Positions 21,161 through 62,451 of a DNA stretch of 64,000 nt are shown here, one piece after another; position 1 is the stretch's first letter; each line of letters opens with the position of its first letter. Source of the DNA: Pseudonocardia asaccharolytica DSM 44247 = NBRC 16224 (GTDB taxonomy: Bacteria > Actinomycetota > Actinomycetes > Mycobacteriales > Pseudonocardiaceae); the NCBI RefSeq assembly GCF_000423625.1, contig NZ_AUII01000010.1, positions 1 through 64,000 on the forward strand, read 5' to 3'. The notes beneath the pieces are model-generated. The model had not been told where the DNA came from, did not search any database, and was given only the letters and a program-made list of their open reading frames with translations. The position numbers were made by a program, and so were the translations under genes.

Positions 21161-21829
21161 TCAGGCGGCGCCCACCGCGACCGGCAGGCCGTGGCGCTTC
21201 CACTCCGGGAAGCCGTCCTCCAGCCGCGCCGCGCGCAGGCCATGCTCACGCAGCTCGCGGACCGCCTCGTCGGCGTAGACGCAGTACGGGCCGCGGCAGT
21301 AGGCGACGATCTCGGTGTCGTCGGGCAGCGTGCGCAGCCGCCGGCGAAGCTCGGTGAGGGGCACCGATCGAGCGCCGGCGATGTGACCGGCGGCGTACTC
21401 CGCGGCCGGACGGACGTCCAGCACCAGCACCTCGCCGCGGCGCATCCGCTCGACCAGCGTCGCGCGGTCGACCGCCTCGAGCTCGCTGCGGTCCCCGAGG
21501 TAGGCCCGGGCGAGCCGGTCGAGGCCGGCGGAATGCTGCTCGGCGACCGCACGCACCGCCGCCCACAGCTCCTGCACGCGCTCGCCGGCGAGCGCGTAGT
21601 AGATGCGGGTCCCGTCGCGCCGCGTGCGCACCAGGCCGGCCCTGGCGAGCGTGCGCAGGTGGTGCGAGGTGTTGGCGACGCTCTGTCCGATCTGCTCGGC
21701 GACCTGTTCGACCGGGCGTTCGCCCTGGGCCAGCAGGTCGACGATCTCGGCCCGGCGGCCCGACCCCAGCGCCCCCGCCACCTCGGCGAATGCCGAGAAC
21801 AGCGCGTCCTTCGCCGCGCGATCGCCCAT
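21161..21829 (-). CDS. ArsR family regulator fused to a rhodanese domain
   Basis: A 222-residue fusion. Residues about 1-100 form an ArsR winged helix (RRAEIVDLLAQGERPVEQVAEQIGQ, NTSHHLRTLARAGLVRTRRDG). Residues about 120-215 form a rhodanese domain (GEVLVLDVRPAAEYAAGHIAGARSVPL) with a catalytic-type Cys in AYCRGPYC. ArsR proteins of this build are thought to sense sulfane sulfur or related reactive species through the Cys pair. The start ATG 21829 faces the divergent DsrE-methyltransferase operon across 135 bp that contains two inverted repeats. I infer it represses that operon. Confidence 0.88.
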   Translation of the reverse strand: MGDRAAKDALFSAFAEVAGALGSGRRAEIVDLLAQGERPVEQVAEQIGQSVANTSHHLRTLARAGLVRTRRDGTRIYYALAGERVQELWAAVRAVAEQHSAGLDRLARAYLGDRSELEAVDRATLVERMRRGEVLVLDVRPAAEYAAGHIAGARSVPLTELRRRLRTLPDDTEIVAYCRGPYCVYADEAVRELREHGLRAARLEDGFPEWKRHGLPVAVGAA

Positions 21830-21851: not shown

Positions 21852-21929
21852 CCTCTTCTGTCAAGTTCATATGAATACTTGACAAGAGGCCGCTCGGAGC
21901 AGATCCTCAAGCATCTACTTGAAAAGTAG
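21852..21929. promoter_or_regulatory. Divergent operator region of the ArsR-rhodanese regulator
   Basis: Two inverted repeats. The first (21852-21889) pairs CCTCTT-c-TGTCAAGT with ACTTGACA-AGAGG around an AT-rich centre containing TTCATATGAA. The second (21915-21929) is CTACTT-GAA-AAGTAG. Their AT-richness and position between the divergent ArsR and DsrE genes fit ArsR-type operators. Confidence 0.6.
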
Positions 21930-21964: not shown

Positions 21965-22330
21965 ATGAGCGACAAGGTGATCGTGAATCTCGCCACGGGC
22001 CTGGAGGACGCCGAACGCGTCACCGTCGCGTTCCTCGTCGCCACCGCTGCGGCCGAGCGTGGACAGCCGGTCCGGATCTTCCTGACGAAGGAGGCGGTGC
22101 GGCTCGGACTGAAGGACGGCATCATCGGGGTGGCCTGCGAGGGATGCCCACCGCTGCCCGGGCTGGCCGAGCGGTTCGCCACCGCACACGGGCGGCTGCT
22201 GGTGTGCCCGATCTGCTTCAACGCGCGCAGGCTGGACGACACCGCGCTGGTCGGGTACGCCGAGATCGCCGGGACCGCCCCGCTGTTCGACTGGATCGGC
22301 GGCGAGGCGGCCACCGTCTTCAGCTACTGA
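21965..22330 (+). CDS. DsrE-like sulfur-relay protein
   Basis: A 121-residue DsrE/DsrF-like protein: KVIVNLATGLEDAERVTVAFLVATAAAERG is the family's N-terminal beta-alpha unit. Cys residues occur in ACEGCPPLPG and in VCPICFNARRL, the second close to where sulfur-carrying cysteines lie in the family. ATG 21965 follows GCCGGAGGAC. First gene of the operon opposite the ArsR-rhodanese gene. It probably carries sulfane sulfur, or another chalcogen, to or from the rhodanese domains encoded downstream; that is inference. Confidence 0.82.
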   Translation: MSDKVIVNLATGLEDAERVTVAFLVATAAAERGQPVRIFLTKEAVRLGLKDGIIGVACEGCPPLPGLAERFATAHGRLLVCPICFNARRLDDTALVGYAEIAGTAPLFDWIGGEAATVFSY

Positions 22331-22351: not shown

Positions 22352-23119
22352 ATGCACGAGGTGCTGGTCGATGCCGACGTCCTGCGCGCGCAGGTCCGGG
22401 AGAAATACCGCGCCGTCGCGACGGAACCGGACGGCACCTACCACTTCCACACCGGACGCGGGTTGGCCGCCCGGCTCGGCTACGCCGACGCGGAGGCGCT
22501 GCCCGACGCGGCGGTGGAGTCGTTCGCCGGGGTGGGCAACCCGTTAGCGCTGCGGCCGCTGCAGCTCGGGGAGCGGGTGGTCGACATCGGCTCCGGTGCG
22601 GGCTTCGACAGTTTCATTGCGGCCGGACAGGTGGGCCCGGACGGCCGGGTGGTCGGGGTCGACATGACCGAGGAGATGCTGGTCAAGGCGCGTCGGACCG
22701 CGGAACAGCTCGGCCTCGCGCAGGTGGAGTTCCGCGTGGGCCTGGCCGAGTCTCTTCCGGTGCCCGACGGCTGGGCCAACGTCGTGATCTCCAACGGGGT
22801 GTTCAACCTGTGCCCGGACAAGGCGGCGGTGTTCGCCGAGGTCCACCGCGTGCTGCGGCCCGGTGGGTGGCTGCAGTTCGCCGATATCGCCAACGGTCGG
22901 CCGGTCCCGGTGGAGGCCATGCGCAACATCGACCTGTGGACCGGTTGAATTGCCGGCGGGCTGCCCCGTGCGGGCTGGCAGGCGATGCTCGAGCAGAGCG
23001 GGTTCACCGACGTTCGGATCGGACCGGCGTGGGATACCTTCGGCGGTGCCCTCGGCGAAGGCAACGCCCGTGCCTTCGAGGTCTTCGGCTACCCCTTCCT
23101 CGCCCGCAGACGGAGGTGA
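22352..23119 (+). CDS. ArsM-like SAM methyltransferase with in-frame TGA (candidate selenoprotein)
   Basis: A 255-residue class I methyltransferase if TGA 22946-22948 is read as selenocysteine (codon 199). Motif I is VVDIGSGAGFDSFIAA, followed by VGVDMTEEMLVKARR, VVISNGVFNLCPDKAAVF and HRVLRPGGWLQFADI, the order seen in arsenite methyltransferases (ArsM). In ArsM the next block reads like LWxxCxAGAL with an As-binding Cys. Here it is DLWTG-U-IAGGLP, so the TGA stands exactly at that Cys. The frame then continues uninterrupted for 56 codons (MLEQSGFTDVRI ... AFEVFGYPFLARRRR) to a normal TGA. A hairpin follows the TGA. A conventional reading gives a 198-residue truncated protein. The alternative is a point-mutated pseudogene, but a second gene in the same operon shows the same pattern. 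Confidence 0.75.
22949..22980 (+). promoter_or_regulatory. Candidate bacterial SECIS hairpin after TGA 22946
   Basis: GCCC (22963-22966) pairs with GGGC (22972-22975) around an apical CGTGC loop that starts 18 nt after the TGA. The second loop base is G, as I recall for bacterial SECIS models. An alternative fold pairs TGCCGGC (22951-22957) with GCTGGCA (22974-22980). The stem is short, so it is suggestive only, but loop and spacing match the hairpin at 26158-26186. Confidence 0.5.
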
Positions 23120-23124
23120 CGCTG

Positions 23125-24495
23125 ATGAACGCCCCATCCGTGCAGGTGATCCCGGTCGTGGACGAGGGGCTGGGCAACTCCAGTTACGTCGTGGACCTCG
23201 GCGACGGCGCCGCGCTCATGGTGGACCCGCCCCGGGACCTGCGCGGCGTCCGCGCCGCGACCCAGCGGCACGGGCTGCGGATCCGGTTCGCCGCCGACAC
23301 CCACCTGCACGCCGACTTCCTCTCCGGTGCCGTGCAGCTGGCCCACGACGACGGCGCACAGGTGCTCGCCTCGGCCGCCGGGCGCCGCGAGTTCCCCCAC
23401 CGCGGGCTGGTCGACGGCGAGCAGGTCGGCCTCGGCGGCCTGGTGCTCGCCGCGCTGGCCACGCCGGGGCACACCAACGAGCACCTCTCGTTCCTGCTGC
23501 TCGACGACGGCGTCCCGCGCGGGGTGTTCACCGGCGGGTCGCTGATCGTCGGGTCGGCGGCACGCACCGACCTGCTCGGCGCCGACCGGGCCGAGGAGCT
23601 CGCCCGCGCCCAGTACGGCTCGTTGCGGCGGCTGGCGACGCTGCCCGCCCAGACCGCGGTATGGCCCACGCACGGCGCGGGCTCGTTCTGCTCGGCCCCG
23701 CCCGGGGCGCAACGCACCTCCACGATCGGCCGGGAGCTCACGTCGAACCCGCTGCTGCAGGTCCCGGACGCCGACGCGTTCATCGACGCCCTGATCGGCT
23801 CGCTGGGCAGCTATCCCCCGTACTTCCGCCGCCTGGCCGAGCACAACCGGCGCGGTCCCGGGGTGCTTTCCGCCGACGCCGGGCCGCTGGCCCCGTTGCC
23901 GGTGCCGGAGGTCGGCAGGCTGCAGGCCGACGGCGCGCTCGTGATCGACGTCCGTCCGGTGCCGCACTGGGCCGCCGCGCACATCCCGGCCGCGCTGTCG
24001 ATCCCCTTGCGCCCCCAGTTCGCCACCTGGCTGGGCTGGCTCGTCCCGGCCGACGCCACGCTGGTGATCGTGCGCGACACCGACCAGGACGCCGAGGAGG
24101 TCTTCTGGCAGGCGGTCAAGATCGGTTACGAACGCCTCGCCGGAGAGCTTGCCGGCGGGATGGACGCGTGGACGGCGGCCGGACGGCCGACGGCCCGCAC
24201 CGAGCTGGTCGGCGCGGACCGGATGGAGGATCGCGCCGTGCTCGACGTCCGGCAGCATCCCGAGTTCCTCGGTGGGCATCTGCCCGGGGCTCGGCACGTC
24301 GAACTCGGCGCCCTCGAAGCGGCCGCGGACCGGGTGCCCGACGTGCCCACCGTGGTCATGTGCGGGCACGGGGAACGCGCCGCCGGCGCGGCCAGCCTGC
24401 TCGAGCGGGCCGGCCACCGCGACCTCGCCGTCCTGGTCGACGGCGCGGATGGTTGGTCCCGGGCCAGCGGGCGGGAGCTGGAGACCGGCGCGTGA
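23125..24495 (+). CDS. Metallo-beta-lactamase fold hydrolase with two rhodanese domains (persulfide dioxygenase-like)
   Basis: A 456-residue fusion. The N-terminal beta-lactamase fold has the metal motif THLHADFLSG and a second His in TPGHTNEHLSF, the arrangement seen in ETHE1/Blh persulfide dioxygenases. Two rhodanese-like domains follow: one around ALVIDVRPVPHWAAAHIPAAL that lacks the catalytic Cys (IVRDTDQDAE), and one with the Cys in VVMCGHGERAAG. Such proteins oxidise or transfer sulfane sulfur from low-molecular-weight thiol persulfides. ATG 23125 follows CGGAGGTGACG; the open frame reaches far upstream but that part is a shadow. It lies between the methyltransferase and the MFS gene in the operon. 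Confidence 0.88.
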   Translation: MNAPSVQVIPVVDEGLGNSSYVVDLGDGAALMVDPPRDLRGVRAATQRHGLRIRFAADTHLHADFLSGAVQLAHDDGAQVLASAAGRREFPHRGLVDGEQVGLGGLVLAALATPGHTNEHLSFLLLDDGVPRGVFTGGSLIVGSAARTDLLGADRAEELARAQYGSLRRLATLPAQTAVWPTHGAGSFCSAPPGAQRTSTIGRELTSNPLLQVPDADAFIDALIGSLGSYPPYFRRLAEHNRRGPGVLSADAGPLAPLPVPEVGRLQADGALVIDVRPVPHWAAAHIPAALSIPLRPQFATWLGWLVPADATLVIVRDTDQDAEEVFWQAVKIGYERLAGELAGGMDAWTAAGRPTARTELVGADRMEDRAVLDVRQHPEFLGGHLPGARHVELGALEAAADRVPDVPTVVMCGHGERAAGAASLLERAGHRDLAVLVDGADGWSRASGRELETGA

Positions 24496-25778
24496 GCAGT
24501 AGCGAGGCGACCGGCGGTCTGCGGCTGGGGCTGCGCGCCAACCTCGCCCAGTTCACCCTGCTCGTTGCGGTCAACGCCCTGGTCGGCGGGATGCTGGGGC
24601 AGGAACGCACGGTGCTGCCGCTGCTGGCCGACCGGGCGTTCGGACTCACCGCCTACACCGCCGCGCTGACCTTCATCGTCGCCTTCGGGGCCACCAAGGC
24701 CGCTACCAACTACATCGCCGGGACGCTCTGCGACCGGTTCGGCCGCAAACCGGTGCTGGTCGTCGGGTGGCTGATCGGGCTGCCGGTACCGTTGCTGCTG
24801 ATCTGGGCGCCGAGCTGGGGCTGGGTGATCGCGGCCAACGTGCTGCTGGGGCTCAACCAGGGCCTGACCTGGTCCACCACCGTCATCATGAAGATCGACC
24901 TGGTCGGCCCGAGACGCCGCGGGCTGGCGATGGGGCTCAACGAGGCCGCCGGCTACCTCGCCGTCGCCGCGACCGCGCTGGCCACCGGCTACCTCGCCGC
25001 CCGCTACGGGCTGCGCCCCGAACCCTTCTACCTCGGCATCGCCTTCGCCGCCCTCGGGCTGGGCCTGTCCACGCTGGCGGTGCGCGAGACCCGCGGACAC
25101 GCCCGGCTCGAGGCCGCCTCCCACACCGCCCGCCCGGACGGGCGCCACGACCACTTGCATGCCGAGCTCAGCAACCGGAAGGTGTTCACCCAGACCAGCT
25201 TCCACGAGCCCGCGCTGTCCGCGGCCAGCCAGGCCGGGATGGTCAACAACCTCAACGACGGCCTGGCCTGGGGGCTGTTCCCCGTGCTGTTCGCCGCGGC
25301 CGGCCTGTCGGTCGCCCGGATCGGGGTGCTCGCCGCGCTCTACCCGGCGGTGTGGGGGCTCGGGCAGCTGGTCACCGGGGCGCTGTCGGACCGGACCGGC
25401 CGCAAACCCTGGATCACGGGCGGGATGCTCCTGCAGGGCGCGGCGCTGGCTCTGGTCGCGGCCGGTGACACGTTCGGCGTGTGGGCGGCGGCCGTGGTGC
25501 TGCTGGGCGCCGGGACCGCGATGGTGTACCCGACGCTGCTGGCGGCGATCGGCGATGTCGCGCATCCGGTGTGGCGGGCCCGCTCGGTCGGGGTGTACCG
25601 GCTCTGGCGCGACGGCGGGTTCGCGGTCGGCGCGCTGGCCGCGGGGCTGCTCGCTGACGCCTTCGGCCTCCGGGCCGCGGTCTGGGTCGTGGCCGCGCTG
25701 ACCGCCGCGTCCGGGCTGCTGGTCGCCGCACGCATGTACGAAACCCACCCGCGCGTCACGTCCGGGACGCCGGGATGA
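24492..25778 (+). CDS. MFS transporter
   Basis: A 428-residue major facilitator with 12 predicted helices. The loop 2-3 motif is LCDRFGRKPVLVVGW, and its second-half copy is ALSDRTGRKPWITGG. A His-rich central loop (GRHDHLHAEL) separates the halves. GTG 24492 overlaps the MBL-rhodanese stop (GTGA), and its own stop overlaps the next start (ATGA), so it belongs firmly to the operon. Probably exports a methylated or thiol-linked product of the neighbouring enzymes; the substrate is not known. Confidence 0.88.
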   Translation: MSSSEATGGLRLGLRANLAQFTLLVAVNALVGGMLGQERTVLPLLADRAFGLTAYTAALTFIVAFGATKAATNYIAGTLCDRFGRKPVLVVGWLIGLPVPLLLIWAPSWGWVIAANVLLGLNQGLTWSTTVIMKIDLVGPRRRGLAMGLNEAAGYLAVAATALATGYLAARYGLRPEPFYLGIAFAALGLGLSTLAVRETRGHARLEAASHTARPDGRHDHLHAELSNRKVFTQTSFHEPALSAASQAGMVNNLNDGLAWGLFPVLFAAAGLSVARIGVLAALYPAVWGLGQLVTGALSDRTGRKPWITGGMLLQGAALALVAAGDTFGVWAAAVVLLGAGTAMVYPTLLAAIGDVAHPVWRARSVGVYRLWRDGGFAVGALAAGLLADAFGLRAAVWVVAALTAASGLLVAARMYETHPRVTSGTPG

Positions 25779-26542
25779 GCCTGCCACCGCTTCCGCGCGG
25801 CGCGGTCACCGATCGCATCGAACGACGAGTCATCGGCGCCGATTTCGGCGCCGACGGCTACACCACCCGCACCCAGGCCGACGAGCTCGCCCGTCACCTC
25901 CACCTGCGGCCGGGCCGGCGGCTGCTCGAGCTGGGCAGCGGCCGCGGATGGCCCGGCCTGTACCTTGCGGCCCGCACCGGTTGCGCGGTGGTGCTCACCG
26001 ACCTGCCCGTCGACGGCCTCGCCATCGCGAACCGGCGGGCGACGCGGGAGGGAGTCGACGCGCGGTGTGCGGTCGTCGCGGCGTCGGGCCAGCACCTCCC
26101 CTTCGCCGCCGAGACCTTCGACGCGGTCGGCCATGCCGATGTGCTGTGTTGACTGACGGCCAAGCTCTCCGTGCTGAGAGCCAGCCGCCGCGTTCTGCGC
26201 CCGGGCGGGCGCACCGCGTTCTTCACCATCCACGTCGCCCCCGGCCTCTCCCCGGCCGCCCGGCGCCGGGCCGCCGAGGCGGGCCCACCCGCGGTCACCA
26301 GCCACGGCAACTACCGGAACCTGATGCGCTCGGCCGGGTTCGTCGAGGTCGAGGAGCACGACGTCACCGCCGCCTATCTCGAGACCGCGCGGGCGTGGCT
26401 GCGCCACGTCGAGGACGCCGCGGACGATCTCGCCGCGGTCGAACCGCCCGGGTTGGTCGCGGATCGGCTCGCCCGTCGTCGTGAGGTGGTCGCCGCGATC
26501 GAGTCCGGGCTCTTGCGGCGCTCGCTCCTGATCGGTTCTTGA
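25775..26542 (+). CDS. SAM methyltransferase with in-frame TGA (candidate selenoprotein)
   Basis: A 255-residue class I methyltransferase if TGA 26150-26152 (codon 126) is translated. Motif I is LLELGSGRGWPGLYLAA, and the region before the TGA reads FDAVGHADVLC. After the TGA the same frame continues LTAKLSVLRASRRVLRPGG, AFFTIHVAPG and SAGFVEVEEHDVTAAYL to TGA 26542. Relatives I remember have DVLCCL, so the TGA replaces the second Cys of a CC pair. A hairpin follows the TGA. ATG 25775 overlaps the MFS stop (ATGA). Read conventionally, the product would be a useless 125-residue fragment lacking motif III. The substrate is unknown; context suggests a thiol, metalloid or chalcogen compound. Confidence 0.75.
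26158..26186 (+). promoter_or_regulatory. Candidate bacterial SECIS hairpin after TGA 26150
   Basis: GCTCTC (26164-26169) pairs perfectly with GAGAGC (26176-26181) around a CGTGCT loop. A lower GGC/GCC helix (26158-26160 with 26184-26186) extends it. The apical loop starts 17 nt after the TGA, and G is its second base. Loop CGTGC and spacing match the hairpin in the first methyltransferase gene. Confidence 0.6.
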
Positions 26543-58575: not shown

Positions 58576-58651
<76 letters not shown>

Positions 58652-62079: not shown

Positions 62080-62451
62080 TGGTGGAGGTGCCGGGAATCG
62101 AACCCGGGTCCTCCGTCGCGTCACAAGGGCTTCTCCGTGCGCAGTCCGCGTCGCCTCTACTCGGACCCACCGGTCATGCGAACCTGCCGGTGTGACGATC
62201 CCAGTCGCTGTGTGATGTCCCGTGCAGCCCCGCGACCGAGCCGCACGGTCAGTTCCCTAGCTGATGCCGGTTACCGGGTCGGGAACGCTCCCGGGCCGAC
62301 AGCGACGCTCCTGCCTCAGGCGGCGAGGGCGTACGCAGTGCGCTTATCAGCGGCACTTATTTTTTTGCGACGCGTGGTTAACGAGGTCATCGTCGCCTTC
62401 CTCGGCACGCTTCCCCTTGCTCAACATCCGGAGTCGAAACCGTTCACCCCC
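62080..62451 (-). ncRNA. ssrA: tmRNA
   Basis: A 372-nt transfer-messenger RNA. The 3' tRNA-like end reads GGTTCGATTCCCGGCACCTCC plus ACCA, and the 5' end GGGGGTG pairs with CACCTCC. The 5' part GAACGGTTTCGACTCCGG is the tmRNA D-loop signature. In the middle an open frame ends TACGCCCTCGCCGCCTGA (YALAA-stop), the usual degradation tag end. Resuming at GCT GAT AAG would give ADKRTAYALAA. It rescues ribosomes stalled on broken mRNA, with SmpB encoded nearby. Confidence 0.95.

What the first reader, a model, noticed from the sequence alone, without database searches (positions are those of the whole stretch)
25775..26542. Second methyltransferase in the same operon with TGA in place of a Cys
TGA 26150 follows a TGT Cys codon (DVLC-U-LTAKL). 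The frame then continues 130 codons through motif III to the end. Relatives I recall carry DVLCCL. A second independent TGA-for-Cys event four kilobases from the first, in the same co-transcribed unit, makes chance mutation unlikely.
Basis: partly seen in the sequence, partly recalled or inferred. Interest (0 to 1): 0.93.

Follow-up and report, generated by a model that had tools for sequence, protein, structure and literature searches.

The report
Unlisted selenocysteine methyltransferase with Cys-Sec pair
A methyltransferase gene in an actinobacterium carries a stop codon (TGA) in its middle that is kept at the same place in 19 genomes and is predicted to be read as the rare amino acid selenocysteine, which would make this a family of selenium enzymes that the catalogues we checked do not list.

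Summary
TGA 26150-26152 splits a 255-residue SAM-dependent methyltransferase (MT2). Of 120 listed full-length relatives, 119 have Cys there, after an invariant Cys. It is no error: all 9 carriers in an unbiased draw of 396 genomes have exactly one internal stop, this TGA; a scan requiring TGA added 10 genomes (19 in all); 118 of 119 listed short relatives end at this codon. Just downstream, codons CTC-TCC-GTG are identical in 18 of 18 TGA copies and Arg135 is AGA in 16, against 6 of 447 Arg codons elsewhere in such genes: the mark of a SECIS hairpin. The genome has selA, selB, tRNA-Sec (TCA) and selD, itself with a TGA. MT2 is very probably a selenoprotein with a Cys-Sec pair in a predicted active-site loop. 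It ends an operon with an ArsM-like methyltransferase whose own TGA aligns with ArsM Cys224, plus DsrE, MBL-rhodanese and MFS genes and a divergent ArsR-rhodanese regulator; parts recur in five other loci. The substrate, a soft metalloid or chalcogen, is inferred. MT2 is not in NCBIfam 20.0 or a 119-family 2026 review; three relevant papers were not available.

The parts
25775..26542 (+). MT2: SAM-dependent methyltransferase, 255 residues if the TGA is read through; start overlaps the stop of the MFS gene
   Evidence: Translation; Pfam Methyltransf_11 58.4 bits over cut-off 21.2; homologues over the full length
26150..26152 (+). In-frame TGA, codon 126, predicted selenocysteine codon, directly after invariant Cys125
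   Evidence: Cys in 119 of 120 listed relatives; only internal stop in 9 of 9 genomes of the phylum draw and in 18 of 18 copies checked
26164..26181 (+). Predicted SECIS hairpin GCUCUC-CGUGCU-GAGAGC, 11 bases after the TGA
   Evidence: Codons 131-133 identical in 18 of 18, Arg135 AGA in 16 of 18; 95.6% of pair cells standard, no compensatory change; MFE fold (z -1.73)
24492..25778 (+). MFS transporter, 428 aa, likely exporter of the operon
   Evidence: PF07690 151 bits; 70-73% identical MFS in L037 and L054 clusters
23125..24495 (+). Metallo-beta-lactamase fold protein with rhodanese domains, 456 aa
   Evidence: PF00753 31.2 bits, PF00581 94.9 bits in two stretches
22352..23119 (+). MT1: ArsM-like methyltransferase with its own in-frame TGA (codon 199)
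   Evidence: NF008823 215.5 bits, below cut-off 263; the TGA residue aligns with the Cys of solved ArsM that counts as 224 in the alignment; TGA kept in 4 of 4 MT1 copies next to MT2 elsewhere
22946..22948 (+). In-frame TGA of MT1, predicted selenocysteine codon (W-T-G-U-I-A-G-G)
   Evidence: 27 of 35 matches in 33 of 396 genomes have one TGA inside, 8 have none
22949..22986 (+). Predicted hairpin after the MT1 TGA; weak support from folding energy
   Evidence: z -0.47, 54 of 200 shuffles fold as well
21965..22330 (+). DsrE-like protein, 121 aa, first gene of the putative operon
   Evidence: PF02635 28.8 bits over cut-off 22.7
21161..21829 (-). Divergent ArsR/SmtB regulator fused to a rhodanese domain
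   Evidence: NF033788 78.1 bits over cut-off 55; PF00581 59.3 bits
21859..21884 (.). Palindrome TGTCAAGT-N10-ACTTGACA between regulator and operon, operator-like (inferred)
   Evidence: Inverted repeat I2, 8-base arms, 100%; not found in five related loci

Best explanation
The TGA at 26150-26152 is a conserved internal codon that is very likely read as selenocysteine, making this gene a 255-residue SAM-dependent methyltransferase whose adjacent Cys125 and predicted Sec126 would bind a soft metalloid or chalcogen substrate for methylation. Shown: the TGA is kept at one codon, its counterpart in other relatives is Cys, codon choice is constrained over the hairpin just downstream, and the genome has the Sec machinery genes. 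Inferred: SelB binds that hairpin and delivers Sec-tRNA(Sec), and translation goes on to 26542. Inferred from a predicted structure (U modelled as Cys): the Cys-Sec pair lies in the loop after the strand at 115-120, where class I methyltransferases usually meet their acceptor. Inferred from neighbours: the ArsR-rhodanese regulator senses a thiophilic compound, DsrE and the MBL-rhodanese protein handle sulfane sulfur or selenium, the ArsM-like selenoenzyme and MT2 methylate, and the MFS protein exports. I hold the selenocysteine reading at about 0.95 and the metalloid/chalcogen substrate at about 0.4.
For: Cys in 119 of 120 listed full-length relatives; exactly one TGA and no other stop in 9 of 9 genomes of a draw of 396; 10 more genomes from the TGA-requiring scan; 118 of 119 listed short relatives end at this codon; codons 131-133 identical in 18 of 18 copies, AGA at 135 in 16 of 18 against 6 of 447 elsewhere; S-V-L at 132-134 in 18 of 18 TGA forms but 15 of 119 Cys forms; selA, selB, tRNA-Sec, selD in the genome; repeated TGA/Cys exchange on the tree; operon partner with a TGA at ArsM Cys224; selD beside the cluster in L035; confident class I fold.
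Against: No experiment: no protein, selenium or read data. SelB passes its cut-off in 15 of 19 carriers, not all, and the excess over the base rate of 214 of 396 is not significant for the nine drawn genomes (P 0.13). The hairpin has no compensatory changes and modest folding energy (z -1.73). For the substrate: Sec126 is not at an ArsM metal-ligand position, the nearest solved folds methylate organic molecules, and 14 of 19 loci examined show no clear cluster partner beside MT2 (many stretches are short).
Confidence: 0.9

Rival explanations
1. The TGA is a sequencing or assembly error, or the gene is a recent pseudogene.
For: No reads were available for the window.
Against: Same single TGA in 9 of 9 carriers of an unbiased draw and in 19 genomes in all; coding conservation equal on both sides; constrained codons downstream.
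Confidence: 0.01
2. UGA is read as Cys or Trp by another tRNA or by leaky read-through, without selenium.
For: Cys is the counterpart in relatives, and one database relative shows Trp (P0020).
Against: Neighbouring genes of the window end at TGA, so the code is standard; a full Sec machinery is present; codon constraint fits a SECIS, which plain read-through would not need; P0020 is sister to a TGA gene, so its Trp is probably a gene-caller artefact (inferred).
Confidence: 0.04
3. The functional product is the 125-residue N-terminal half, and the TGA is a true or regulated stop.
For: Termination competes with Sec insertion at UGA in bacteria (start of the abstract of PMC4513850 in the listing), so some short product is expected.
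Against: The part after the TGA is as conserved as the part before, and 119 of 120 listed full-length relatives carry Cys and no stop, so the full protein is under selection.
Confidence: 0.03
4. It is a selenoprotein, but the Cys-Sec pair serves another chemistry: methylation of a thiol, persulfide, selenide or small organic molecule, or a selenenylsulfide redox switch that turns the enzyme on and off.
For: Three sulfur-handling proteins lie in the cluster (DsrE, MBL-rhodanese, ArsR-rhodanese); the nearest solved folds act on organic acceptors; the pair is not at the ArsM ligand positions.
Against: The operon partner is ArsM-like with its TGA at a metal-ligand Cys of ArsM, and the regulator is of the ArsR type.
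Confidence: 0.45

Closest known systems
Arsenite methyltransferase ArsM, including its selenoprotein form (NF008823, motif UxxG; listed as experimentally verified in Table 1 of PMC13188914)
   Same: SAM-dependent class I methyltransferase; an ArsM-like gene with a TGA stands in the same operon; shares sequence with MT2 over the methyltransferase core
   Different: MT2 scores 37.2 bits against a cut-off of 263; its predicted Sec126 lies in the strand-4 loop, four residues after the position of ArsM Cys174, and not at Cys224; it carries a vicinal Cys-Sec pair
MduS, methyltransferase domain-containing selenoprotein (NF045649)
   Same: Methyltransferase domain with predicted Sec
   Different: 32.5 bits against a cut-off of 380; the review lists MduS with two Sec and motif CxxU, MT2 has one TGA and motif CU
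DVU_1556 family methyltransferase (NF045667)
   Same: Best NCBIfam match of MT2 (52.8 bits)
   Different: Far below its cut-off of 155
AtmM/RebM, TleD, MitM and phosphoethanolamine methyltransferases (solved structures)
   Different: About 12-26% identity; MitM has no Cys-Cys or Cys-Sec at this place in the alignment shown; other substrates
Selenoproteins with a CU motif such as SaoC, SaoL, HgcA, MbdU (names and motifs from Table 1 of PMC13188914)
   Same: Adjacent Cys-Sec; the review links several such families to metals or organometals
   Different: None is described there as a stand-alone class I methyltransferase; no sequence comparison was made here

Membership tests
Bacterial selenoproteins | In-frame TGA at a position where relatives have Cys, conserved in several organisms | tested here: met
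   119 of 120 listed relatives Cys; TGA in 19 genomes
Bacterial selenoproteins | SECIS hairpin directly downstream of the TGA, with a G in the apical loop | tested here: met
   Hairpin with loop CGUGCU; codon-level constraint. Not met in the strict sense of covariation: no compensatory change
Bacterial selenoproteins | selA, selB, selC, selD in the same genome | tested here: met
   in the other carriers SelB passes in 14 of 18
Bacterial selenoproteins | Selenium shown in the protein | not testable with these tools
   Needs 75Se labelling or mass spectrometry
Class I SAM-dependent methyltransferase | Rossmann-like methyltransferase fold and motif I glycines | tested here: met
Arsenite methyltransferase ArsM (NF008823), for MT2 | Score over the curated cut-off | tested here: not met
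   37.2 against 263
Arsenite methyltransferase ArsM, for MT2 | Cys (or Sec) at the places of ArsM Cys174 and Cys224 (roles recalled) | tested here: not met
   Through MT1, the place of Cys174 is Asp122 in MT2; no counterpart of Cys224 was seen aligned
Selenoprotein ArsM (UxxG), for the partner MT1 | UxxG at the ArsM Cys224 place | tested here: met
   U-I-A-G aligned with C-L-G-G of solved ArsM
Selenoprotein ArsM (NF008823), for the partner MT1 | Score over the curated cut-off | tested here: not met
   215.5 against 263; 216.4 and 213 for the relatives in L035 and L037
MduS (NF045649) | Score over the curated cut-off; two Sec with CxxU | tested here: not met
   32.5 against 380; one TGA, motif CU

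The most novel reading that the evidence does not exclude
An actinobacterial gene island encodes a two-selenoenzyme methylation pathway, an ArsM-like Sec methyltransferase and a Cys-Sec methyltransferase, under an ArsR-rhodanese sensor and ending in export, that detoxifies or volatilises a thiophilic element such as arsenic, selenium or tellurium. The Cys-Sec pair is a vicinal soft-element ligand inside a class I methyltransferase, a use of selenocysteine that is not in the inventory of prokaryotic selenoproteins we read.
Probability: 0.3. Interest if true: 0.85.

Novelty: new variant of a known kind. Interest (0 to 1): 0.74.

Why it matters
Public protein databases seem to hold this family split in two: full-length forms, 119 of the 120 listed with Cys, and short stubs of 107-161 residues, of which 118 of the 119 listed besides the window's own end exactly at this codon; 802 short relatives were found in all. 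If right, many short 'methyltransferases' are broken annotations of a selenoenzyme, and gene callers and family libraries need a rule for it. Cys and TGA forms have interchanged several times, so matched pairs can test why a methyltransferase would use selenocysteine at all. In this genome none of the five FDH-like matches has an internal stop, so methyltransferases and SelD may be what keeps selenocysteine in use (inferred; the whole selenoproteome was not listed).

Tried and rejected
Error or pseudogene: rejected by recurrence. Altered genetic code: rejected, since neighbouring genes end at TGA. Stop-free length as evidence: rejected, 18% of shuffles do as well. Covariation in the hairpin: no compensatory change, so uninformative; the argument rests on codon choice. 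SelB enrichment among carriers: not significant (P 0.13). A loop shared by the MT1 and MT2 hairpins: considered, not claimed, because the minimum-energy fold of MT1 in the window has another loop and model R1 does not hit MT1. R1 in the whole own genome finds only MT2 (150 of 3949 candidates were scored), so it does not list the selenoproteome. Formate dehydrogenase as the main selenoprotein: five matches at E<=1e-50, no internal stop. Viral contigs: no match to the TGA pattern. The palindrome at 21859-21884 was not found by its pattern in the five related loci scanned. Arsenic methyltransferases are absent from the 50 rows shown by each structure comparison, which excludes nothing. DNA of Cys-form relatives could not be fetched, so codon choice in Cys forms was not compared, only the protein sequence. 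Kinship inside the own family could not be used: 1 of 297 genomes has the gene. The 15 aligned loci leave out L021 (near-copy of L020) and L049-L051; one search missed L049 (its pattern did not fit) and one search left out L031 (cut by its contig end).

Full report
OBSERVATION. The frame 25775-26542 (+) is open except for TGA at 26150-26152, codon 126, in the context D-V-L-C-TGA-L-T-A-K-L, and ends at TGA 26540-26542. 129 sense codons follow the TGA. The downstream half is coding: identity to the nearest full-length relative P0002 is 88 of 125 before and 86 of 129 after, with similar codon-position GC on both sides. The start ATG overlaps the stop of the preceding MFS gene, so translational coupling is likely (inferred). 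The other TGA of the putative operon is at 22946-22948, 3.2 kb upstream.

CYS COUNTERPART. A protein search gave 377 relatives with E<=0.001 among 7,998 scored candidates; the best 120 were listed and all 120 were aligned with the window's protein. Position 125 is Cys in 120 of 120. Position 126 is Cys in 119 and Trp in one, P0020. On the tree P0020 is sister to a TGA gene, L036 (support 98), so its Trp is probably a TGA translated by a gene caller (inferred).

THE TGA IS CONSERVED. Three looks agree. (a) Not asking for a TGA: in 396 genomes drawn from the phylum, 9 (the window's among them) have the gene at E<=1e-30, and all 9 have exactly one internal stop, a TGA; in a draw from the own family 1 of 297 genomes, the window's own, has it. 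(b) Asking for it: a scan of the genome collection for D-V-L-C-TGA-L-x-x-K gave 19 loci; 15 are homologues by tblastn and 4 (L025, L027, L029, L033) are chance. That leaves 19 distinct genomes. Titles, where given, name Actinomycetota groups, Acidobacteria and Gemmatimonadota. In the 18 copies read over nearly the whole gene the TGA is the only stop (L031, cut by its contig end, left out). (c) A search with the first 125 residues gave 802 short proteins among 907 candidates. 120 were listed, one being the window's own; 119 of the 120 (118 of the 119 others) end in Cys at this place. Which stop follows them was not seen. One, P0123, is named Pseudonocardia hispaniensis.

SECIS. The 48 bases from the TGA were aligned for 15 loci. 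A hairpin GCUCUC-CGUGCU-GAGAGC starts 11 bases after the TGA. 95.6% of pair cells are standard pairs, with wobble changes at two pairs and no compensatory change. The stronger evidence is codon choice. In 18 TGA copies (L020 and L021 are near-copies) codons 131-133 are CTC, TCC, GTG in all 18, codon 134 is CTG (13) or TTG (5), and codon 135 is AGA in 16. These genes are 62-76% GC and use AGA for 6 of 447 Arg codons outside this region (sets of 17-18 copies that differ by one row; Fisher P 6e-23, not corrected for relatedness). Among conserved degenerate positions of 17 copies (L021 dropped), codon identity is 1.0, 1.0, 1.0 and 0.94 at 131, 132, 133 and 135, against 0.31-0.79 elsewhere; the exceptions are codon 127 (1.0, partly fixed by the scan pattern) and Ile152 (ATC in 15 of 15). 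The pattern in (b) left codons 131-135 free. At protein level S-V-L at 132-134 stands in 18 of 18 TGA forms and in 15 of 119 Cys forms. Folding energy alone is modest (z -1.73; 13 of 200 shuffles as low). A model of the hairpin finds only this site in the own genome.

MACHINERY. The genome has selB (260 bits, cut-off 242.25) directly after selA (396.5 bits, cut-off 267.9), tRNA-Sec with anticodon TCA and selD, which itself has one TGA inside, all on contig C25. SelB passes its cut-off in 15 of the 19 TGA genomes: 7 of 9 of the draw (for G434, G477 and G507 inferred from E-values below that of the window genome's passing match, for G552 and G583 failure is inferred likewise) and 8 of 10 of the scan (L022 and L035 fail). 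G552 and G583 are 73% and 61% complete; completeness of the other two is not told. The base rate in the draw is 214 of 396, so this fits but proves nothing alone (P 0.13).

EVOLUTION. On a tree of 138 sequences the 18 TGA rows need nine changes of state, at least three forced by well-supported branches (quick method, several long branches). TGA and Cys have thus probably been exchanged repeatedly, as described for other bacterial selenoproteins (passages of PMC1794560).

THE OPERON. On the + strand: DsrE-like (21965-22330), MT1 (22352-23119), metallo-beta-lactamase/rhodanese (23125-24495), MFS (24492-25778), MT2 (25775-26542); divergent ArsR-rhodanese (21161-21829), with a palindrome TGTCAAGT-N10-ACTTGACA between. 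A promoter scan found no sigma-70-type site. MT1 is ArsM-like (215.5 bits, cut-off 263). Its TGA-199 aligns with the Cys that counts as 224 in the solved ArsM (that this Cys binds As(III) is recalled). The TGA is kept in the four MT1 copies beside MT2 in L035, L037, L054 and L055. In the phylum draw 33 of 396 genomes have an MT1 match at E<=1e-55, 35 matches in all: 27 with one TGA, 8 with none. The own genome has a second MT1, 84% identical, also with one TGA. Cluster members recur beside MT2 in L037 (all but DsrE), L035 (DsrE, MT1), L054 (MT1, MFS), L055 (MT1) and L024 (ArsR-rhodanese); in 14 of the 19 loci examined (two of them one genome, several of them short) there was none, or only a weak methyltransferase match. 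In L035 a selD (394.9 bits) stands next to DsrE. MT1 is in 4 of the 9 MT2 genomes of the draw against 33 of 396 overall (P 0.004).

STRUCTURE AND MECHANISM. AlphaFold2, with U as Cys, gives a confident class I methyltransferase (pLDDT 91.6, pTM 0.88). Residues 121-129, a loop with one helical turn and lower confidence (mean 77 for 121-130), follow the strand 115-120, so Cys125-Sec126 lies where this fold usually faces the acceptor (inferred; no ligand was modelled). The nearest folds are AtmM/RebM, TleD, MitM and phosphoethanolamine methyltransferases. Through MT1, Sec126 lies four residues after the place of ArsM Cys174, so it is not the same ligand. C70, H120, C125 and K130, invariant in 60 sequences, are further candidates for the site. 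I propose that Cys125 and Sec126 bind a soft metalloid or chalcogen for methyl transfer from SAM, with MT1 acting on the same or a linked species and the MFS protein exporting. The main rival is a thiol, persulfide or organic-acceptor methyltransferase, or a selenenylsulfide switch.

NOVELTY. No NCBIfam 20.0 model passes its cut-off for MT2 among the 25 best of 26 matches shown: ArsM 37.2 of 263, MduS 32.5 of 380, best DVU_1556 52.8 of 155. Table 1 of PMC13188914 (May 2026, 119 families; section 7 parts 1 and 2 read) lists ArsM (UxxG), three methyltransferase or ArsM fusions and MduS, but no stand-alone Cys-Sec methyltransferase. Passages of PMC12013277 and PMC9312934 and the listings of eight paper searches showed none. 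The Haft and Gwadz 2023, Haft and Tolstoy 2025 and Deng 2026 papers are not held, so a description there, or in a supplement, is not excluded. Selenoproteins and Sec methyltransferases are known kinds; what is new is this family, the Cys-Sec site in the strand-4 loop, and the paired cluster.

Noticed in passing
22946-22948, and G000 contig C50:10043-10813: MT1, the ArsM-like gene of the same operon, has its own conserved in-frame TGA, and the genome holds a second MT1 copy (84% identical) that also has one TGA.
   Followed up: partly
L054:2618-3277 (-): A further ArsM-like gene with an in-frame TGA (WAG-TGA-LSGAL) lies 1.6 kb from MT1 in the same locus as MT2.
   Followed up: no
L035:2892-3893 (-): A selD gene without an internal stop stands next to the DsrE, MT1 and MT2 genes in a Sporichthyaceae record.
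   Followed up: partly
21161-21829 and 21859-21884: An ArsR regulator fused to a rhodanese domain, divergent from the operon, with an operator-like palindrome in the gap.
   Followed up: partly
G000 contigs C38, C33, C5, C2, C9: Five FDH-like matches in this Sec-decoding genome have no internal stop, although formate dehydrogenase is the most widespread bacterial selenoprotein according to PMC13188914.
   Followed up: no
L022, L035, G552, G583: Four genomes with TGA-form MT2 show no SelB over the cut-off; two of them are incomplete MAGs.
   Followed up: no
62080-62451 (-): tmRNA gene with tag AADKRTAYALAA, and tRNA-Ala at 58577-58651.
   Followed up: no
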